This document shows positions 16,031 through 28,745 of a stretch of DNA of 28,927 bases, piece by piece. The position numbers and the translations under genes are program-made. The stretch is from a virus. The notes below the pieces were generated by a model. It was not told where the DNA came from. It searched no databases and saw only the letters and a program-made list of their open reading frames with translations. The DNA lies in IMG/VR virus record IMGVR_UViG_3300046804_004993, positions 1 through 28,927 of that record; one strand, written 5' to 3'. Position 1 is the stretch's first letter, and the number at the start of each line of letters is the position of its first letter.

Positions 16031-17890
16031 ATGATTGAGAATAAAGACATAAAATACTTAAATAAAGACTTTTCTACGTTTAAATCTGATTTAATAGAAT
16101 ACGCTAAATCATATTTTCCGACATCTTATAATGATTTTAATAATGCTTCTCCTGGTACCATGTTCATAGAAATGGCTGCGTATGTTGGAGATATCTTATC
16201 ATTTTATTTAGATAATCAAATACAAGAAAGTTTTTTACAATATGCTAAACAACCAAATAATTTATATACTTTAGCATACATGTTAGGTTATAGACCGAAA
16301 GTAACATCTGCCGCTATTGTAGATCTAGATGTCTATCAAACCGTACTAGCTAAACAAGTAGGATCAGAGTGGATTCCCGATTTCGATTATGCTTTAACAA
16401 TCGCCCCAGGTTTACAAGTATCTTCAAATAATAACGCGGGAGTTTCTTTTTACGCGCCGGATAAAATAGATTTCACCATGTCTTCTTCATTAGATCCAAC
16501 AGAAGTATCGGTATACTCTCTAACTTCAGGTAGACCAGATACTTTTCTATTGAAAAAAACAACTAAAGCTATATCTGGAGAAGTAAAAACTGCAACCTTC
16601 GATTTTGGAAATTCAGATAGATTTCCTTCCGTCACTTTGCAAGATTCAGATATTATTAATATTATAAGTGTAACAGATAGTGATGGAAATAAATGGTATG
16701 AAGTTCCATATTTAGCTCAAGATTACATATTAAATGCAGCAGAAAATACAGCGGCTAATTATCCTGATCTCTATCAATTTAATAATGAAGTTCCATATAT
16801 GATAGAAAAGCTTTCTGTACCAAGAAGATTCACCTCTAGGTTTTTATCCAATGGTACGTTAATGCTAGAATTTGGATCAGGTATAGACTCAAGTAAATCT
16901 GATAATCAAATATTGCCTGTTCCAATGAGCGCTAGTTTAGGATTAACTAATGGACTTACTTGGTTAAATACGGCATTTGATCCTACTAATTTTGTCGTAA
17001 CACAAACTTATGGTTTAGTTCCAAAAAATACAACTCTAACTGTTAATTATTTAGTGGGTGGAGGATCATCAGCGAATGTATTATCTAATCAATTAAATAG
17101 AGTATCAAAAATATCAGCAACTTCTCTAGGATCTCCTTCAAGAATCAATACAGTTATAGTAGATAATCCAAATCCAGCTTCTGGTGGCGGAGATGGGGAA
17201 ACAAACGAAGAATTAAGATATAATATATTATCTCAGTATCCTAGCCAAATGAGAGCTGTTACACAACAAGATTATATGGCAACTGTTTTAGCAATTCCCG
17301 CTAAATTTGGAAAAATATCAAAAGTTTTTGTAACTAAAGATGATTCTACTTTTAAAAATTATGTCAATACAGATAATTTTGAAAAAGATCAAATGTTAAT
17401 AAGTTTGTATGTACTAAGTTATAATTCACTTGGAAATCTAAGTACTCCATCAAATGCTCTATTAACTAACTTAAAAACATATCTTAACGAATATAAGTTA
17501 TTAACAGATTCTATAAACATAAAAAATGCATATATTATAAACATAGGATGTAATTTTGAAGTTGTAATTAGACCAAGCTATTCAGGCCAAGATGTAATCG
17601 CCCGATGCATAAACTCTGTTAAAAGCTATTTCACAATTTCAAATTGGCAAATTAATCAACCAATAATTCTTTCAAATATATATTCAATATTAGATCAGGT
17701 AGAAGGCGTACAAACCGTTTCTAAAGTTGATATTATAAATAAAGTTGGAGAAAGTAATGGGTATTCTAAGTATGCGTACGATATAGCTGGAGCTACATTA
17801 AAAGGAGTTATATATCCATCGTTAGATCCATCGATATTTGAAGTAAAATATCCCAATACAGATATACAAGGCAGAGTTGTTGCTTATTAA
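16031..17890 (+). CDS. gp6: Baseplate wedge protein gp6-like (baseplate J family)
   Basis: 619 residues; T4 gp6 has 660. The N-terminal part (FNNASPGTMFIEMAAYVGDI, about 37-56, then SFYLDNQIQESFLQYAKQP) is the conserved start of gp6/baseplate J proteins. The middle is beta-rich, GETNEELRYNILSQ near 392-405 is typical of the J-domain entry helix, and the C-terminal ~170 residues contain the strand-helix repeats of the wedge dimerisation domain. Two copies per wedge form the iris-like ring of the baseplate. The N-terminal position after gp25 and length make this call robust. Confidence 0.87.
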   Translation: MIENKDIKYLNKDFSTFKSDLIEYAKSYFPTSYNDFNNASPGTMFIEMAAYVGDILSFYLDNQIQESFLQYAKQPNNLYTLAYMLGYRPKVTSAAIVDLDVYQTVLAKQVGSEWIPDFDYALTIAPGLQVSSNNNAGVSFYAPDKIDFTMSSSLDPTEVSVYSLTSGRPDTFLLKKTTKAISGEVKTATFDFGNSDRFPSVTLQDSDIINIISVTDSDGNKWYEVPYLAQDYILNAAENTAANYPDLYQFNNEVPYMIEKLSVPRRFTSRFLSNGTLMLEFGSGIDSSKSDNQILPVPMSASLGLTNGLTWLNTAFDPTNFVVTQTYGLVPKNTTLTVNYLVGGGSSANVLSNQLNRVSKISATSLGSPSRINTVIVDNPNPASGGGDGETNEELRYNILSQYPSQMRAVTQQDYMATVLAIPAKFGKISKVFVTKDDSTFKNYVNTDNFEKDQMLISLYVLSYNSLGNLSTPSNALLTNLKTYLNEYKLLTDSINIKNAYIINIGCNFEVVIRPSYSGQDVIARCINSVKSYFTISNWQINQPIILSNIYSILDQVEGVQTVSKVDIINKVGESNGYSKYAYDIAGATLKGVIYPSLDPSIFEVKYPNTDIQGRVVAY

Positions 17891-19323: not shown

Positions 19324-22300
19324 ATGGAAATAGTAAACATAAATTATACTGGTGCAGGTAAAAAAGTATCCAACTACTCTCAAAAAGATTCCTATCTAAT
19401 AAATCTAGATTATGTAAATTCAGCTTTTGGAGATGCTAATGATTATATTGAGACTTTTGTGTATGATCAAAATGGACTATTGCTAGATTCTAATTATAAA
19501 TTTACTGATTATAAATTAGGAGATGTAGCTTCAATTGGTACAAATAAATATTCATCAATAATATTAGATCCTTCAAAAGATGTAAAATATCTTGGTTTTG
19601 ATCGAGGTAAAGTTAATATCCAGTACAATTTTTTAAAAAATCTATTTAATTCTAAACAAGGCGTTTTTTATTGGATAAAAGAAATTTCTCCAAGTCGTAG
19701 AGAGTTAAAGCTATCTTCACAGGATATATCTGGAGACTCTATGAATCAAGGATTGCAATCTTTTCAATCTTATATACTAAGCAAAAATTATTATTCTGAT
19801 TTTTATCTTAATTTTGGTACTAATAATTTAGTATTAGCTGTAAATGCAGCATATATAGAAGACGATAATGATAATCCACATATATTAATAAAATTATATG
19901 AGCCTTTACCATTTGATTATGATATTAAATCTACTCTTTGGATAGTTGATAAAGTAGCTGAATCCGTTAGTTACGATGTTGACATACAAATAGAAACTGA
20001 AGTTGTTGATATACAAAATACATTACGCGGTCCAAATTATAATGTACAAATTATAGAAAAAATAGGGCAAACTACACCTTACTATACATACAATAGTTTA
20101 TTTTCTGCTGATACTTCTTCATCAATTCAACAATTAATATCATATTATGATGATAAAGGGATATCAATAAATGTAGATTTTGCAAATTTTGATAATTTTG
20201 TTCATTTTTCTAGCGCAACTGAAAGACTTAAAAATTTCCAATATAAAGTTGGATTGATTGAATCATACAATAATCAAATAAATGATCAAAGACAGATAAC
20301 TGGAAATAGCCAAGTTGTTTCTGCGTCTGTACAAGTTTTACAAAATAATATAGATAAGATAATAGAAAAATTTGACATATACGATTATTATCTATATTAT
20401 GAATCTGAATCTTTTGCTTGGCCAAAATCAACATCGACAAAACCATATTCGCTGTACTCAATAACATCTTCTCAAGCAGTTAATTGGTTAGGAAATGAAG
20501 ATCTCATCCCATCTGGAATTACTACTGCATCATTATTATATTCGGCTTCTGCGTATGATGGAAATAATATAAATAATTTAGTAAATGTTGTTCCAAACTA
20601 TTTAATAGATGATCCCAATAATGCTCCCTATATCACATTCATCAATATGATAGGTCAGCATTTTGACAATATTTGGGTTTATTATAAAGATTTATCTAAT
20701 AGATATAATGCTACGAATAATCCAAAAACTGGCATATCATTAGATTTGGTTGGGGAAGCTATAAAAGGATTCGGAATTGAATTATATACAAACACAAATC
20801 TATCAGATGACGTATATTACACGTTATTTGGTGTAGGACAATCTGGTACATTATTGCCTCCAACTGGATCTGAAGTTATAGAAACTTATGTGACTTCTAG
20901 TTATAATACTCTACCATACAATCAGGTACAGAAAGAAATTTATAAAAGGATATATCATAATCTTCCCTACTTGTTGAAAACAAGAGGCACAGAGAGAGGC
21001 GTAAAAGCACTAATAGCATGTTATGGAATACCAGATAATATATTGTCGGTTAATCAATTTGGAGGATATGATAGATTGGATAAAATTGGTTTGGTTGACT
21101 TAAATAACGATAAAATAAGAATAATAAGTCAAAGTAATGAACTTTCCGAATCAGTACTATCTCCGTATTCCACATTGCAACATTACGATAATGATAATAG
21201 ATTAAATAGTAATGTTATAGAAATAGGTTTCTCTCCTGCAGATGAATTAAATCGACAAATATCTTCATCTTTAGGATTTTTTAGTATTGATAATCTCATA
21301 GGAAATCCATCGGATCAATATTCTTCAACATATTCTGCATTAGACAGTCAAAGAAATACTTATTTTTCATCTTATACAGGAAAACATAACATTTGGGAAT
21401 ATATAAGATTAATCAAGTATTATAATAATTCACTATTTAAGATAGTTAAAGATTTTGTTCCCGCAAGATCAACAGTATCATCAGGAATAATAATTAAACC
21501 TCACATATTAGAAAGATCTAAATACGCTAGACACGAACCTTCCGCTTCTATGATGGAACTAACTCAGTCTATCGATATGGTTGAAATATCTGGAGATCAT
21601 GCGAATTCATATACTATTTCAAGTACTGTTCAAAAAAATATACCTTCTAAAATAGGATACGCCCAATATACCAGTTCTGTAGGATACGAAAAATATACAG
21701 GAGAATTTCAAGGCACAGATTTCTCAGGAAGAGATTCATACACATTTAATCAAAAAGACTCATCTAATAATGCTTCAATTCTCAACTCAATCACAATAAC
21801 TGGTGTTACTCAAAGTTACTATTTTGGAGATACTGTTTATTTTTCACAAAATCCAGAACACAGAAATAGTCCAATATCTATACAAAGATCAGCCACATTT
21901 AATAATGTAAGTACACCAGTAAGATCAAAAAGATTTTTAGATGTAGATTATTCTACTGATATGAGAGTGCCGGTGAATATGGACATAATTACTAAAACGA
22001 TATCAAGATCTTTAGTTGATAATTATGATACATATACAGACATAAATACACCGTATGCGTACATACAAGATTATAACTATTATATACAAAGAAGTACTAT
22101 TCCTAGATACTATGGATCAAAATTAGAAGGCTTAAAAATAAATTATTATAGTACAGCATCTGATTCTTGGCAAGGCGATACCTCTTATGGAAGTTATCCC
22201 GTATTAGAAAGAAGATCAGGTAAAATAGCGTTATTTACTCAAATCCAAACAAGTTCTTTTTTTCCTGGATTAGTAAACGCTACCCTTGGATATTTAGTTG

Positions 22301-22941
22301 ATGCTGCTGCAGGATTGCATGAATTAAATTTAGAAAATAATAATTGGTTTGAAGTACAAAACATTTTCAAATCAGGAAAGAATTTAACAATAAAACAATT
22401 CGATAATAAAAAATACAGCAATCAAAAAACAACAGATGGCCAAAAATTTATTTTTGAAAGTGGATATACTTACAATGCTATGTTGTATTTTAACGAAGAG
22501 GTTGATACAAAAGTATATTTTACTTATTTAGGTGAAGCTGATGCATATCTAGAAGCTCATAACGATTATGATCCAAATAATATGGTTACTGGATCTACAA
22601 CCTTAGATTATCCAATAATTTCTACAAACATCGCAAGATCAGCATCTGTTTATAATATATTCGATAATGTTACTAGCGATGCTGGAAATAATTTTACTAT
22701 AGGTAGCTCTGATGCTAAAACATTCCCAACTTATTCAATTGCATATGCAGGTAATTATCAAATCAATGCTAATTTTTTACTTAATATAACAGCATCAGCA
22801 ATCACAGATTCAGGATCTTTTACATTAAACATAATTAAAAATGGAGAAGTTGTTGCATCACAAAATAAATTATTTGGAGGAAATAGTATTATAGACAATA
22901 ATTGGTACGTATCATTTGGAGGAATAATTGGTGGCGCATAA
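19324..22941 (+). CDS. Large tail protein, N-terminal portion of an apparently split gene
   Basis: 1205 residues, beta-rich with many Asn/Ser/Tyr/Thr. About residues 534-575 hold the block KRIYHNLPYLLKTRGTERGV then KALIACYGIP, which I recall from large structural proteins of marine T4-like phages and which resembles phage tail protein I. The last ~70 residues (GNYQINANFLLNITASA, then SFTLNIIKNGEVVASQN) look like the first strands of a C1q/TNF-like jelly-roll but the fold stops short: the ORF ends with a Gly-rich tail, FGGIIGGA, and a double stop (TAA TAA). The missing strands appear at the start of the ORF at 23743. The likely role is a wedge-to-fibre junction protein or receptor-binding baseplate protein. 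The following Hint ORF starts 15 nt later in the same frame. Confidence 0.7.
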   Translation: MEIVNINYTGAGKKVSNYSQKDSYLINLDYVNSAFGDANDYIETFVYDQNGLLLDSNYKFTDYKLGDVASIGTNKYSSIILDPSKDVKYLGFDRGKVNIQYNFLKNLFNSKQGVFYWIKEISPSRRELKLSSQDISGDSMNQGLQSFQSYILSKNYYSDFYLNFGTNNLVLAVNAAYIEDDNDNPHILIKLYEPLPFDYDIKSTLWIVDKVAESVSYDVDIQIETEVVDIQNTLRGPNYNVQIIEKIGQTTPYYTYNSLFSADTSSSIQQLISYYDDKGISINVDFANFDNFVHFSSATERLKNFQYKVGLIESYNNQINDQRQITGNSQVVSASVQVLQNNIDKIIEKFDIYDYYLYYESESFAWPKSTSTKPYSLYSITSSQAVNWLGNEDLIPSGITTASLLYSASAYDGNNINNLVNVVPNYLIDDPNNAPYITFINMIGQHFDNIWVYYKDLSNRYNATNNPKTGISLDLVGEAIKGFGIELYTNTNLSDDVYYTLFGVGQSGTLLPPTGSEVIETYVTSSYNTLPYNQVQKEIYKRIYHNLPYLLKTRGTERGVKALIACYGIPDNILSVNQFGGYDRLDKIGLVDLNNDKIRIISQSNELSESVLSPYSTLQHYDNDNRLNSNVIEIGFSPADELNRQISSSLGFFSIDNLIGNPSDQYSSTYSALDSQRNTYFSSYTGKHNIWEYIRLIKYYNNSLFKIVKDFVPARSTVSSGIIIKPHILERSKYARHEPSASMMELTQSIDMVEISGDHANSYTISSTVQKNIPSKIGYAQYTSSVGYEKYTGEFQGTDFSGRDSYTFNQKDSSNNASILNSITITGVTQSYYFGDTVYFSQNPEHRNSPISIQRSATFNNVSTPVRSKRFLDVDYSTDMRVPVNMDIITKTISRSLVDNYDTYTDINTPYAYIQDYNYYIQRSTIPRYYGSKLEGLKINYYSTASDSWQGDTSYGSYPVLERRSGKIALFTQIQTSSFFPGLVNATLGYLVDAAAGLHELNLENNNWFEVQNIFKSGKNLTIKQFDNKKYSNQKTTDGQKFIFESGYTYNAMLYFNEEVDTKVYFTYLGEADAYLEAHNDYDPNNMVTGSTTLDYPIISTNIARSASVYNIFDNVTSDAGNNFTIGSSDAKTFPTYSIAYAGNYQINANFLLNITASAITDSGSFTLNIIKNGEVVASQNKLFGGNSIIDNNWYVSFGGIIGGA

Positions 22942-22956
22942 TAAAACAATAAGAAT

Positions 22957-23028
22957 ATGAATTACGAAGTAGTAAATATATCGACAGACGTAAAAACGTA
23001 TATAGCAAATGGAGTTTTAACGCATAAT
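22957..23028 (+). other. Hint domain C-terminal block (blocks F-G)
   Basis: Encodes residues 1-24 of the permuted Hint protein, ending ANGVLTHN. The terminal His-Asn is the asparagine-cyclisation pair of inteins and bacterial intein-like domains. The next residue is Lys, so C-terminal cleavage rather than ligation would be expected. Confidence 0.7.
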
Positions 23029-23733
23029 AAATTCACTAGTTGTGCGAGTTCGGTAACAAAGGATCTTCAATGGGGAATAACAATATCTTTTGGTGATGAT
23101 TATGTACCCGCATATCCATTAACCCTAGAAGTAGGTACATCGTACACTACGTTCGATGATATATTGGGATGTAAAAGATTCGAACACGCTGATGGAACAG
23201 CATATAAATCATTTACAATAACGAATACAGGTCAAACGTATCCATATACGTATAATGTTAATTTTAAAAGATACGGAGGAAGTGTTAACGGAGCCATAGC
23301 GTATTCTGCCTCAGTTTCAGGTCAAGATGCTAATGGCAAACCAGCTTCTGGATCTTCAAATACGAATATATCGTATAAAAGTGAAAGATGGCCACCATCT
23401 GGAATCGAATGTTTAACACCTAATACTCAATTAGAAAAATACGATGGATCAATCGTATTATTGAAAGACGTAGAAGTAGGAACTGAATTAATGAGTATTG
23501 ATTTAAAATCGATGCAAAAAATTAAAGCTGTAGTAACTGGTAAGACTATTCACTCAGTTGAAAATATTTATTCTATAAACAAAGGTTTATTGTCGTGTTC
23601 TGAGAGTCATTTACATATTGTTAAAAGAAATGATAAGTGGAGAAAAATCAGATCAAACAAATTAAAAATTGGAGATTTGTTACTCGATAGAAATTTTAAT
23701 GAAATTCAAATAAATTCAATAGATTATATTTAA
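22957..23733 (+). CDS. Circularly permuted Hint (intein-like) protein: C-block, beta-rich segment, N-block
   Basis: 258 residues. Residues 1-24 (EVVNISTDVKTYIANGVLTHN) are the C-terminal end of a Hint/intein domain: strand, block F-like region and block G ending H23-N24, followed by K25. Residues 25-151 are an uncharacterised beta-rich segment with two Cys pairs in possible contact. Residues 152-258 are the N-terminal part of a Hint domain: C152-LTPNTQLEKYDGS (block A), VEVGTELMSID, then SESHLHIVKR (block B with His), KLKIGDLLL and a last strand EIQINSIDYI. Joined as 152-258 plus 1-24, the pieces would make a complete Hint domain of about 130 residues. The order C-block, cargo, N-block is the inverse of a normal intein. 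The catalytic Cys152, block-B His and Asn24 are all present. K25 is not a splicing nucleophile and the usual block-F His seems replaced by Lys. Cleavage, or less likely cyclisation, of the central segment is plausible. Confidence 0.65.
   Translation: MNYEVVNISTDVKTYIANGVLTHNKFTSCASSVTKDLQWGITISFGDDYVPAYPLTLEVGTSYTTFDDILGCKRFEHADGTAYKSFTITNTGQTYPYTYNVNFKRYGGSVNGAIAYSASVSGQDANGKPASGSSNTNISYKSERWPPSGIECLTPNTQLEKYDGSIVLLKDVEVGTELMSIDLKSMQKIKAVVTGKTIHSVENIYSINKGLLSCSESHLHIVKRNDKWRKIRSNKLKIGDLLLDRNFNEIQINSIDYI
23410..23730 (+). other. Hint domain N-terminal block (blocks A-B)
   Basis: Encodes residues 152-258 of the permuted Hint protein. It starts with CLTPNTQ, the Cys that would make the N-S acyl shift, contains the block-B His in SESHLHIV, and stops after the strand EIQINSIDYI, exactly where the C-terminal block would continue in an ordinary Hint domain. 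Confidence 0.7.
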
Positions 23734-23742
23734 TATTCCATA

Positions 23743-24504
23743 ATGCCATCAATATCAGGATCACTATCGTTTAATGTATCAAGCTACTTACCGTCTCTTG
23801 TATCTGGAGATGTGTTGAGTTTTCAACTAGTTAGCGAATATCAACCATATAGTAATGATTGGACTGGATCTGTTAGCTATGGACAATTAACGATAGATTT
23901 AGAACCTCAAGTAATCGGTGGATATCCTTACGCAACTTCTAGCATAAATTATGGAGATTTTATATCAGGAACAATATCACCAAATGTTCTCGTATTTAAT
24001 TCGAATATATCTAGTTTTTATCAAAATTATACTCAAATTCCCGTATTCACTTCTGGATCTGGAGAAAATGAAGTAACTATACAGAATAGTTTATATAATC
24101 AATACGGCAATATTAGTGAACCATTTTACTTGTCTTTTGGAGATAAAATATACATGAGATCCTCTGATGGAAGAGTTCAGATTCTAACGATTCTTAATTC
24201 AGAACTTATAAATAATCAGTTGCATGTATACGTAGAACCAGCATTAATAAACACTTTCCTTCTAACACCAGAAAATATATCAGTTTTTCTAATCGCGAAA
24301 AAAGTAAAAGACGAACAGAATATAATTTTACAGTTTAAAAAAGCAGTGGGACAAACTTCATACGGATTCGTTATTTCTGATGATGTCGATCCAAAATTGA
24401 TAGCAAATATATCAACTATACAAACAAATGTTCAAACTCAATTATTATCAACGCAAAATGATAATTCTAGACCATCAAACACTTTAGATTTAGGAAATTT
24501 CTAA
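23743..24504 (+). CDS. Tail protein, probable C-terminal portion of the split 19324 gene
   Basis: 253 residues. It begins in mid-fold: SGSLSFNVSSYLPSLVSGDV then LSFQLVSEYQ, followed by SVSYGQLTIDLE, is what follows the strands at the end of the 1205-residue ORF in a C1q/TNF-like jelly-roll (the GDxLxFxL strand and the closing GxLxI strand). The C-terminal region (IILQFKKAVGQTSYGFVISD and ISTIQTNVQTQLLS) resembles the end of large marine-phage structural proteins that also carry the LPYLLKTRGT block, which supports one ancestral protein of about 1450 residues. It starts 9 nt after the Hint ORF, in the same frame. The upstream half, Hint and this ORF may work as a complex. Confidence 0.6.
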   Translation: MPSISGSLSFNVSSYLPSLVSGDVLSFQLVSEYQPYSNDWTGSVSYGQLTIDLEPQVIGGYPYATSSINYGDFISGTISPNVLVFNSNISSFYQNYTQIPVFTSGSGENEVTIQNSLYNQYGNISEPFYLSFGDKIYMRSSDGRVQILTILNSELINNQLHVYVEPALINTFLLTPENISVFLIAKKVKDEQNIILQFKKAVGQTSYGFVISDDVDPKLIANISTIQTNVQTQLLSTQNDNSRPSNTLDLGNF

Positions 24505-24545: not shown

Positions 24546-25205
24546 ATGTCTTATTTAAGTAGTACATCGGTAGTAGTAGATGCCATTCTAACAAAAAAAG
24601 GTAGAGAACTCTTATCAAGAAATGACGGATCTTTTAGAATAACTCAATTTTCATTAGCAGACGATGAGATTGATTACGCATTGTACAATCCAAACCATCC
24701 TTCTGGATCTGCTTTTTATGGAGAAGCAATTGAAAATATGCCTGTACTCCAAGCGTATCCAAATGATCAAGAGATTATGAAATATAAATTGATAACATTG
24801 CCAAGAGGTACTGCAAAAATGCCTTTTTTAAATGTTGGATTTTCAAATATTTCATTACAACAAGGATCTTCTATAGCAATTACTCCTCAAACTCTCAATT
24901 ATTTAGGAGCAAATTCAACATATGAACAATCAGGATATGTAGCTACTATAGGAGACGTTAGAACGATGTCTACTTTTACTGGAGTTGGTATTAATACACC
25001 TGAAGCGACTCAGTTAAATACAACTTCTACGGTAGGAACTAATGTAAGTAAAACAGTAATTGGAACAACAATAAATTTAACCGCAACAACTGTTAATACT
25101 CTATTTGGAAACAATACAACCTTAACTACAACATTAACAATCACAGGTAGAGATTCAGGAGCAAGAATATCTATCCCAGTAACCATATCATATTTAAACA
25201 GATAA
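24546..25205 (+). CDS. Virion structural protein with N-terminal 'LTKKGRELL' domain
   Basis: 219 residues. The N-terminus SSTSVVVDAILTKKGRELLS followed by SFRITQFSLADDEIDYALYN is a conserved opening of a structural protein in T4-like marine and cyanophages (from memory). The region after about 95 is beta-rich, and from about 155 the protein is a Thr/Val-rich beta domain (TTVNTLFGNNTTLTTTLTIT) probably forming a sandwich. There are no catalytic residues. It starts a new transcription unit by motif position and is followed 4 nt later by the next structural gene. Role: baseplate-peripheral or fibre-attachment protein. Confidence 0.65.
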   Translation: MSYLSSTSVVVDAILTKKGRELLSRNDGSFRITQFSLADDEIDYALYNPNHPSGSAFYGEAIENMPVLQAYPNDQEIMKYKLITLPRGTAKMPFLNVGFSNISLQQGSSIAITPQTLNYLGANSTYEQSGYVATIGDVRTMSTFTGVGINTPEATQLNTTSTVGTNVSKTVIGTTINLTATTVNTLFGNNTTLTTTLTITGRDSGARISIPVTISYLNR

Positions 25206-25209
25206 TATA

Positions 25210-26247
25210 ATGTCATTTACAAGATTCGATCAAACAGATATCGTAATTTCTTCAGATACAGTAACAGCTCCCGCATGGAGTTCAAATAGACCAGAGTTAA
25301 CCGCTTTATATAAAGTTGCCACTCCAGACGACGTTAGTAAATTTTATGTAGACGCGTATAATGATACTGTTGGTTCCACCAACTCTGCTATACAATTTAG
25401 TATTGCATATGGTCATGTAAATGGCACGGGATCAGCTCCAATAAACACTCTTGTTAAATCTAATACCTATTCAAGAATAAACTACGGTCAATATAGAAAT
25501 ATTGTGTACGGTGATAATGAAACTCGTTTTAATTTCGACCAAGGTAATACATCGTCTTTAGATGTATTCGCTATTCAAATAGATAGAAATAGATATAAAG
25601 AATCTCTAATGCCGGGTACGTTTAATATAAAATTAACGTCTGGATCACAAACACTCTATCTAACCGATGATTCATTAGATAACACGACAGCAACATATCT
25701 TGATTGTGGAAGAGCTTATAATATAATTTCTGGCTCTAATGGAACCGCAGGAGGAGTATCTCAATTAACAGGAGCAGCAAGACAAGGTTTTACCGCATCA
25801 GGATCTTATGGATTATTTTTACCAGATGTTGGTCTAATAGTAATAAATCCTATGGCTTTACGTCAAACAGTTGCTAACGGAGGATTAAATGCAGGTTTTT
25901 ATTCTGGAATTGGAGATTCAGCGGTCAATAATGCTAATAATTTGCAAATGTATGATATTATCAATACTGGTGCAAGCTTTAAATTAAACTCGCAAGAAAC
26001 AATATCATCAGACTACGTATTTGTTAGAATAAAAAACAGTGATTATAATTATAGTACGAATCCATCTTTTATTACAGGATCTGGAGATTTGCTATATCAA
26101 ACATTTATAAACAACTCACAAACATATGTAACGACTGTGGGAATGTATAATGATAATAATGAATTATTAGCCGTGGCAAAATTATCTAAACCACTTGTAA
26201 AAGATTTTACTAAGGAAGCTCTAATTAGAGTTAAATTAGATTGGTAA
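25210..26247 (+). CDS. Tail structural protein with C-terminal module duplicated in next gene
   Basis: 345 residues, beta-rich. The N-terminal ~240 residues (FTRFDQTDIVISSDTVTAPA, then a Gly-rich stretch around 180-240) form one domain. The C-terminal ~80 residues (VFVRIKNSDYNYSTNPSFIT, then QTYVTTVGMYNDNNELLAVA, KLSKP) form a module seen again in the 26285-26587 protein. The N-terminal start and the C-terminal module resemble proteins of marine T4-like phages that lie near the baseplate wedge genes. The likely role is a baseplate or tail-surface structural subunit. No enzymatic signature. Confidence 0.65.
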   Translation: MSFTRFDQTDIVISSDTVTAPAWSSNRPELTALYKVATPDDVSKFYVDAYNDTVGSTNSAIQFSIAYGHVNGTGSAPINTLVKSNTYSRINYGQYRNIVYGDNETRFNFDQGNTSSLDVFAIQIDRNRYKESLMPGTFNIKLTSGSQTLYLTDDSLDNTTATYLDCGRAYNIISGSNGTAGGVSQLTGAARQGFTASGSYGLFLPDVGLIVINPMALRQTVANGGLNAGFYSGIGDSAVNNANNLQMYDIINTGASFKLNSQETISSDYVFVRIKNSDYNYSTNPSFITGSGDLLYQTFINNSQTYVTTVGMYNDNNELLAVAKLSKPLVKDFTKEALIRVKLDW

Positions 26248-26284: not shown

Positions 26285-26587
26285 ATGCCACTTGTATTTG
26301 AACCATATTCCATGAGTTTCTGTGCGGAAACAACAATTTATCAAAATGAATACAGATGTCATGTCAACGAAAATGATTTTAACTATACTCTAAATCCAAG
26401 CGCAATAAAATCAAATACGAGTGGATCGTATATAGATGCTTGCACAGGATCTGATTTTAGACCGTACGCAACAACAATTGGATTATATAATGACGCTGAT
26501 CAATTATTAGTTGTTGCAAAACTTTCTCAACCATATCCCATACCTCCTAACACGGATATAACATTTGTGGTCAGATGGGATTCATAA
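26285..26587 (+). CDS. Single-module tail protein, paralogue of the preceding C-terminus
   Basis: 100 residues. RCHVNENDFNYTLNPSAIKS then YATTIGLYNDADQLLVVAKL, followed by SQPYPI, aligns with the last ~80 residues of the 25210-26247 protein (same order of DFNY/DYNY-T/S-NPS, TTxGxYND, LLxVAKLSxP). It therefore seems to be a stand-alone copy of that module, with a short N-terminal addition carrying MSFCAETT. It lies 37 nt downstream; the gap holds a degenerate TATATTTTTA. Probably a small subunit that packs with its larger paralogue in the baseplate. Confidence 0.65.
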   Translation: MPLVFEPYSMSFCAETTIYQNEYRCHVNENDFNYTLNPSAIKSNTSGSYIDACTGSDFRPYATTIGLYNDADQLLVVAKLSQPYPIPPNTDITFVVRWDS

Positions 26588-28271: not shown

Positions 28272-28745
28272 ATGACAAATTGGTTACACGGATCAAATGA
28301 ATTAGTCACTCTTGATCAATTTCCCGAAGGTTGCATAGGATTCGTTTACAAAATAACGAACCTAGAAAACGATAAGATTTACGTAGGTAAAAAAATACTA
28401 CACAACACTCTCACTAAGAAACTAACAATCAAAGAGCGAGAAGCTTGGAACAAACCAGGCAAAATTCCAACAAAAAGAAAAGAAGTAAAAGAAAGCGATT
28501 GGGCAAAATACTACGGTAGCTGCAAACCGCTCTTAGCAGATCTAAAGTATTTTGGACCTCCAAGTTTTACTCGCGAGATACTCGAATTTTGCTACACAAA
28601 AAAACAATTGTCTTATTATGAAGTCAAGTGGCAAATGCTGCTAAACGTACTCGAAAATGATTCTTACAATGAGAATATTCAAGGCAAGTGGTTCAAAAGG
28701 GACACCAAGCAACTAATTGAAAGTCAATACGTTATAACTGATTGA
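28272..28745 (+). CDS. GIY-YIG endonuclease-like protein
   Basis: 157 residues. GFVYKITNLENDKIYVGKK (23-41) supplies the GIY-YIG signature as FVY...YVG, FTREILEFC gives R101, YYEVKWQ gives the catalytic-type E117, and SYNENIQ gives N134. All the family's key positions are present. The insert between Y37 and R101 (about residues 42-98) is rich in Lys and Trp and could bind DNA. GIY-YIG proteins cut DNA and in T4-like phages are often free-standing homing endonucleases (Seg type), or act in host DNA breakdown. It is a separate unit with its own motif upstream and appears somewhat richer in G and C than the tail genes, consistent with lateral transfer. Confidence 0.75.
   Translation: MTNWLHGSNELVTLDQFPEGCIGFVYKITNLENDKIYVGKKILHNTLTKKLTIKEREAWNKPGKIPTKRKEVKESDWAKYYGSCKPLLADLKYFGPPSFTREILEFCYTKKQLSYYEVKWQMLLNVLENDSYNENIQGKWFKRDTKQLIESQYVITD

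What the first reader, a model, noticed from the sequence alone, without database searches (positions are those of the whole stretch)
22957..23733. Natural circularly permuted Hint/intein protein (C-block, cargo, N-block)
Seen: one 258-residue ORF starts with an intein-type C-terminal block ending H23-N24 and ends with an intein-type N-terminal block starting C152, with a ~127-residue beta-rich segment between. The last strand of the N-block (EIQINSIDYI) and the first strand of the C-block (NYEVVNI) would join seamlessly into a normal Hint domain. Known: in inteins the N-block precedes the C-block, and placing a cargo between a leading C-block and a trailing N-block is the topology used artificially to make cyclic peptides and proteins. 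Inference: this phage protein may release or even cyclise its central segment. Lys at +1 and Lys in place of the block-F His argue against full splicing and for cleavage after Asn24 and before Cys152, as in bacterial intein-like (BIL) domains. I know of no described phage tail cassette with this order.
Basis: partly seen in the sequence, partly recalled or inferred. Interest (0 to 1): 0.88.

Follow-up and report, generated by a model that had tools for sequence, protein, structure and literature searches.

The report
Inside-out self-cutting phage tail protein
A phage gene in the tail region encodes a protein whose two ends together make one complete intein-like self-processing domain wrapped around an unknown middle segment, an order known from laboratory-built protein-cyclising constructs and not found in any natural single-gene example I could find; whether it really cuts or closes itself is untested.

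Summary
ORF 22957-23733 (258 aa) begins with an intein C-block (1-24, ending H23-N24-K25), carries a 127-residue middle (25-151), and ends with an intein N-block (C152-I258). A Hint profile I built from phage Hint domains scores the rejoined ends at 68.9 bits over its full length; 2000 shuffles reach at most 10.8. In native order the halves cover profile positions 1-125 and 130-152, so the two breaks complement each other. AlphaFold2 folds both ends with high confidence (pLDDT 94-98); the middle is unresolved. The nearest solved folds are bacterial intein-like (BIL) domains. Catalytic Cys1, a Ser-x-x-His block B and His-Asn are present; +1 is Lys, which is typical of this phage Hint group.

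The gene sits where related phages encode one long tail protein, here broken into three ORFs. Neither neighbour carries a partner half, so ordinary trans-splicing is unlikely. No second example turned up among about 240 full-length Hint matches. The same order does occur in middle pieces of split-intein-fractured enzymes, with different +1 chemistry.

Most likely it is a natural circularly permuted BIL-type domain that releases its middle segment, possibly cyclised. Activity is untested and the case rests on one metagenomic contig.

The parts
22957..23733 (+). ORF2: 258-aa circularly permuted Hint (BIL-like) protein: C-block, 127-aa middle, N-block
   Evidence: translation; Hint profile; AF2
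22957..23028 (+). C-block (IntC), residues 1-24, MNYEVVNISTDVKTYIANGVLTHN; His23-Asn24 is the predicted C-junction
   Evidence: profile positions 130-152, 12.8 bits native, 18.6 bits alone; pLDDT 94-95 for residues 1-20
23029..23409 (+). Middle segment (cargo), residues 25-151, K25...E151, beta-rich, no homologue found; GC 37.5% against 25-29% for the flanking halves
23410..23730 (+). N-block (IntN), residues 152-258, Cys152 nucleophile, block B S215-E-S-H218
   Evidence: profile positions 1-125, 43.8 bits native; profile-profile 98.3%; pLDDT 94-98
19324..22941 (+). ORF1: 1205-aa long tail protein, collinear with the N-terminal part of single 1350-1900-aa proteins of relatives; one Cys only (566), no IntN
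23743..24504 (+). [quoted passage not shown] no IntC at its start
24546..25205 (+). Conserved downstream tail-region gene used to find 80 syntenic loci
16031..17890 (+). Baseplate wedge (T4 gp6-like) protein that fixes the tail context; 48.5% identical to Flavobacterium phage immuto

Best explanation
ORF2 is a natural circularly permuted Hint domain of the bacterial intein-like (BIL) type that encloses the segment it processes. Shown by sequence and model: the two ends are complementary halves of one Hint domain, with all the usual catalytic positions present. Inferred: after folding, Cys152 converts the E151-C152 peptide bond to a thioester and Asn24 cyclises, cutting N24-K25. The 127-residue middle is thereby freed from the Hint halves, mainly as a linear protein. 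In a minority or under the right conditions, the amine of Lys25 (alpha-amine after cleavage, or its side chain) attacks the thioester and closes the middle into a ring. The product probably takes its place in the tail next to ORF1 and ORF3, which together with it replace the single long tail protein of related phages.
For: Joined halves fit the full Hint profile; breaks at positions 125/130 lose about 4 loop positions, and random breaks would fit this well only about 7% of the time. AF2 with alignment: 127 residues at pLDDT >=90, matching the two ends 1-24 and 152-258; best solved matches are BIL2 of Tetrahymena (E 3e-4) and Clostridium BIL 2lwy (TM 0.70 by target, rmsd 1.9 A). Both halves resemble the same Hint subgroup: the 16 THN-ending Hints have N-blocks far closer to this one than the other 78 do, so the halves look cognate. 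C152, S-x-x-H and HN are intact. +1 Lys is usual in this phage group (6 of 10 in a set found without a filter on +1). Codon use matches the neighbours. The ORF has its own start and stop, with tandem TAA ending ORF1.
Against: No activity data. One contig only, no second permuted example and no homologue of the middle segment, so purifying selection cannot be measured. The AF2 model depends on the alignment: the single-sequence run was uninformative (pLDDT 32), and several rows were tandem Hints already in C-block/N-block order. Block B has Ser for Thr and block F lacks His. BIL domains mostly cleave (PMC7664689), so cyclisation is the less likely outcome. The middle segment was not modelled.
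Confidence: 0.55

Rival explanations
1. Middle piece of a fractured tail protein: ORF2 takes part in trans-splicing with other split-intein halves, restoring an ORF1-middle-ORF3 protein like the single protein of relatives.
For: Relatives encode one protein collinear with ORF1, about 95-127 residues, then ORF3. Real phage genes show this order when fractured by several split inteins: L185 ribonucleotide reductase in four ORFs with two C-block/extein/N-block pieces, and a similar L156 PolIII piece.
Against: ORF1 has one Cys (residue 566) and no N-block; ORF3 has no HN or C-block at its start. No other Hint piece lies in the window. +1 is Lys, whereas splicing pieces have Cys, Ser or Thr. The middle has no detectable homology to the relatives' segment (hhalign probability 0.2%). 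The split site (125/130) differs from that of the enzyme inteins (near 111-118).
Confidence: 0.12
2. Inert remnant: recombination cut a piece out of a tandem-Hint tail protein, leaving the C-block of one Hint and the N-block of the next; the ORF has no processing function.
For: Tandem Hints separated by 0-37 residues are common in phage tail proteins, so one excision gives this order. No homologues; the gene breaks up a protein that is whole in relatives.
Against: Breaks complement each other, catalytic residues are kept, codon use is normal, and a long ORF persists where other frames are open for at most 43 codons. Among about 240 full-length Hint matches no comparable remnant was seen.
Confidence: 0.2
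3. Intermolecular use: the C-block of one copy pairs with the N-block of another (or the thioester is taken by a Lys of a neighbouring tail protein), giving head-to-tail chains or covalent attachment to the tail.
For: Tetrahymena BIL2, the best fold match, transfers its N-extein to Lys side chains of different substrates (PMC8616854). Lys at +1 is common in this phage group. Tail proteins are multimeric.
Against: Both halves on one chain favour intramolecular closure; no direct evidence.
Confidence: 0.1
4. Assembly artefact: a chimeric or mis-joined contig created the permuted order.
For: A single metagenomic contig with no independent copy. The middle has a higher GC (37.5%) than the two Hint halves.
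Against: An uninterrupted reading frame across both junctions and full collinearity with relatives on both sides. A mis-join would have to hit frame and both complementary ends.
Confidence: 0.05

Closest known systems
A-type bacterial intein-like (BIL) domains, e.g. Clostridium thermocellum BIL (2lwy)
   Same: Hint fold (TM 0.70 by target length), Cys1, His-Asn end, non-nucleophilic +1, found in variable non-enzyme proteins
   Different: BILs run N-block then C-block and cut what lies outside; here the order is reversed and the processed segment lies between the halves
Tetrahymena BUBL1 BIL2 domain (6tmm, 6y75)
   Same: Best fold match (E 3e-4); a BIL with Lys as acceptor of the thioester (PMC8616854)
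   Different: Contiguous domain between ubiquitin-like proteins; eukaryotic
Engineered circularly permuted or split inteins for protein cyclisation (SICLOPPS; permuted Ssp DnaB, Williams 2002)
   Same: Same order: C-block, cargo, N-block on one chain
   Different: Man-made from splicing inteins with Cys/Ser at +1; here natural, with Lys at +1
Split inteins of fractured phage genes (e.g. L185 NrdA, L156 PolIII seen here)
   Same: Natural ORFs of order C-block, extein, N-block
   Different: Two halves belong to two different split inteins with partners in adjacent ORFs; +1 is Cys/Ser/Thr; conserved enzymes, not tail proteins
Canonical Hint domains at the ends of phage tail fibre proteins (L260, L124/L142, L122, Phage NCTB gp132/gp136)
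   Same: Closest sequences to both halves (38% identity to L260 N-block); mostly HN-K/R; tail proteins
   Different: Contiguous, normal order, extein at the N-terminal side

Membership tests
Hint superfamily | Sequence match to the Hint profile over its whole length | tested here: met
   68.9 bits over 1-152 when rejoined; below Pfam's cut-off
Hint superfamily | Hint fold | tested here: met
   AF2 pLDDT 94-98 at both ends; Foldseek hits are BILs, inteins and Hedgehog; model depends on the alignment
A-type BIL domain | Cys at position 1, block B T/S-x-x-H, C-terminal His-Asn | tested here: met
   C152, S215-E-S-H218, H23-N24
A-type BIL domain | No Cys/Ser/Thr at +1 | tested here: met
   K25
A-type BIL domain | Contiguous domain, N-block before C-block | tested here: not met
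   Order reversed, 127 residues between
A-type BIL domain | Self-cleavage at one or both ends | not testable with these tools
   Needs protein
Class 1 intein | Cys/Ser/Thr at +1 and insertion in a conserved host protein | tested here: not met
   K25; tail protein region, middle segment without homologues
Split intein | Halves on two separate polypeptides | tested here: not met
   Both halves on one ORF; neighbours lack halves; rest of the genome not available
Engineered-type cis cyclising intein (works like) | C-block, cargo, N-block on one chain with cognate halves | tested here: met
   Order and complementarity; same Hint subgroup for both halves
Engineered-type cis cyclising intein (works like) | Cyclic product | not testable with these tools
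   Needs mass spectrometry

The most novel reading that the evidence does not exclude
A natural genetically encoded protein cyclase in cis: a phage uses a circularly permuted BIL domain to make a covalently closed (backbone or Lys25-isopeptide) 127-residue tail protein, the natural counterpart of the laboratory split-intein cyclisation method.
Probability: 0.17. Interest if true: 0.93.

Novelty: new variant of a known kind. Interest (0 to 1): 0.64.

Why it matters
If it works as inferred, it would be the first natural case I know of in which an intein-like domain is turned inside out so that it releases, and perhaps cyclises, the segment it encloses. It would put in nature an arrangement so far known from engineering, give a new self-contained tool with a 24-residue C-half, and make the unexplained role of the many HN-Lys Hint domains in phage tails directly testable on one small protein.

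Tried and rejected
Curated family searches alone: too weak to decide. Close relatives of the whole protein or of its middle in viral contigs and known phages: none. Pattern scans of viral contigs for a C-block close behind a start codon and of genome contigs, checked with the profile: no second single-chain permuted Hint, only canonical Hints, frameshifted ones and split-intein pieces. Middle segment as a homologue of the relatives' segment at the same place: no support. Single-sequence AF2: uninformative. First alignment for AF2 misaligned the C-blocks and was replaced. Phage known-record context: NCTB tail Hints are canonical.

Full report
What is there. The window is a 28,927-base IMG/VR virus record from a contractile-tailed phage: the baseplate wedge protein at 16031-17890 matches T4 gp6-type families and is 48.5% identical to that of Flavobacterium phage immuto. 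ORF1 ends with TAATAA, the second TAA being in frame with ORF2, so ATG 22957 is the only possible start.

Is it a Hint. Pfam and NCBIfam give only weak matches. The rejoined ends align end to end, at low significance, with known phage inteins and with tail Hints of Phage NCTB. I collected canonical phage Hint domains by a C-block pattern, built a profile and scored ORF2: rejoined 68.9 bits over 1-152; native order N-block 1-125 (43.8 bits) and C-block 130-152 (12.8 bits); best shuffle of 2000, 10.8 bits. The break therefore falls in one loop and costs about four positions. If both breaks were placed at random, a fit this close would arise about 7% of the time (a crude model). Cys1, S-x-x-H and HN are kept. 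Both halves resemble the same Hint subgroup: THN-ending Hints have N-blocks much closer to this one (16 against 78, p 8e-8, not corrected for relatedness).

Structure. Tandem Hints in other phage tail proteins read C-block-1, short linker, N-block-2, so unmodified stretches of them align to ORF2 in its native order. With such rows and N-blocks AlphaFold2 gave pLDDT 94-95 for residues 1-20 and 94-98 for 152-258; most of 27-146 is below 50. Foldseek against the PDB ranks Tetrahymena BIL2 first and Clostridium BIL 2lwy fifth, then inteins and Hedgehog. Without an alignment the prediction failed, so the model supports but does not independently prove closure.

Context. In related phages found through the gene at 24546, the place of ORF1+ORF2+ORF3 is usually one protein of about 1350-1900 aa. 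In L034, L016, L077, L024 and L020, ORF1 and ORF3 are collinear with it and about 95-127 residues lie between. No Hint is found at that place, and eight large records of relatives have none at all. The ORF2 middle is not detectably homologous to the intervening residues and has no homologue anywhere searched. Its GC, 37.5%, exceeds that of the Hint halves (29.2% and 25.5%), which may mean that the middle was exchanged.

Neighbouring halves. ORF1 has one Cys, residue 566, so no N-block at its end; the first 80 residues of ORF3 lack HN. No other Hint piece is in the window. A trans-splicing chain with the neighbours is therefore not supported, though the rest of the genome is not held.

How unusual. 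Scans of viral contigs with several patterns and of genome contigs gave about 240 full-length canonical Hint matches, duplicates included, and no other single-chain permuted Hint. In L185 a ribonucleotide reductase lies in four ORFs, two of them C-block, extein, N-block; L156 shows a similar PolIII piece. There the +1 residues are Cys/Ser/Thr, and the two halves on one chain belong to different inteins. In the papers searched, permuted inteins appear only as engineered tools; most subscription journals are not held.

Chemistry. The +1 Lys fits the BIL group: in the ten relatives fetched through the N-block, without regard to +1, it is K 6, V 2, I 1, R 1, while a general pattern brings mostly splicing inteins with C/S/T. 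BILs mainly cleave (PMC7664689). Two results keep ligation open: BIL ligation without nucleophilic side chains (title of Aranko 2013, in the reference lists of PMC4031507 and PMC7664689), and the Lys isopeptide made by Tetrahymena BIL2 (PMC8616854). Functional splits with C-halves of 15-36 residues are established for DnaE inteins (PMC2664965), so a 24-residue C-half is reasonable.

Verdict. Identity of the ends, order and complementarity: shown. Autoprocessing: inferred. Linear release is the likeliest product, cyclisation possible. It fails one defining feature of BIL domains (contiguous order), so I describe it as a circularly permuted variant that should work like a BIL, not as an ordinary member.

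Noticed in passing
L185 4354-8918 (minus strand): Phage ribonucleotide reductase gene fractured into four ORFs by three split inteins, with two C-block/extein/N-block middle pieces and an unrelated ORF between them.
   Followed up: partly
L115 1140-7196: One 2018-aa ORF with four tandem Hint domains joined by single residues, the last one truncated.
   Followed up: partly
L087, L092, L094, L097, L098, L141, L315 and others: Phage tail proteins end exactly at HN-Lys after one to three Hint domains; why a single Lys is kept after the junction is unexplained.
   Followed up: no
window 25210-26247 and 26285-26587: The C-terminal part of the first and the whole of the second look like copies of one domain (NDFNY/SDYNY...NPS, YND..ELL/QLL VVAKLS).
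   Followed up: no
window 28272-28745: ORF begins with a GIY-YIG-like stretch (VYKITNLENDKIYVGKK), possibly a free-standing endonuclease beside the tail genes.
   Followed up: no
L081 4960-12219 (Phage NCTB): Two tail proteins with canonical C-terminal Hints and one free-standing degenerate Hint ORF lie close together.
   Followed up: partly
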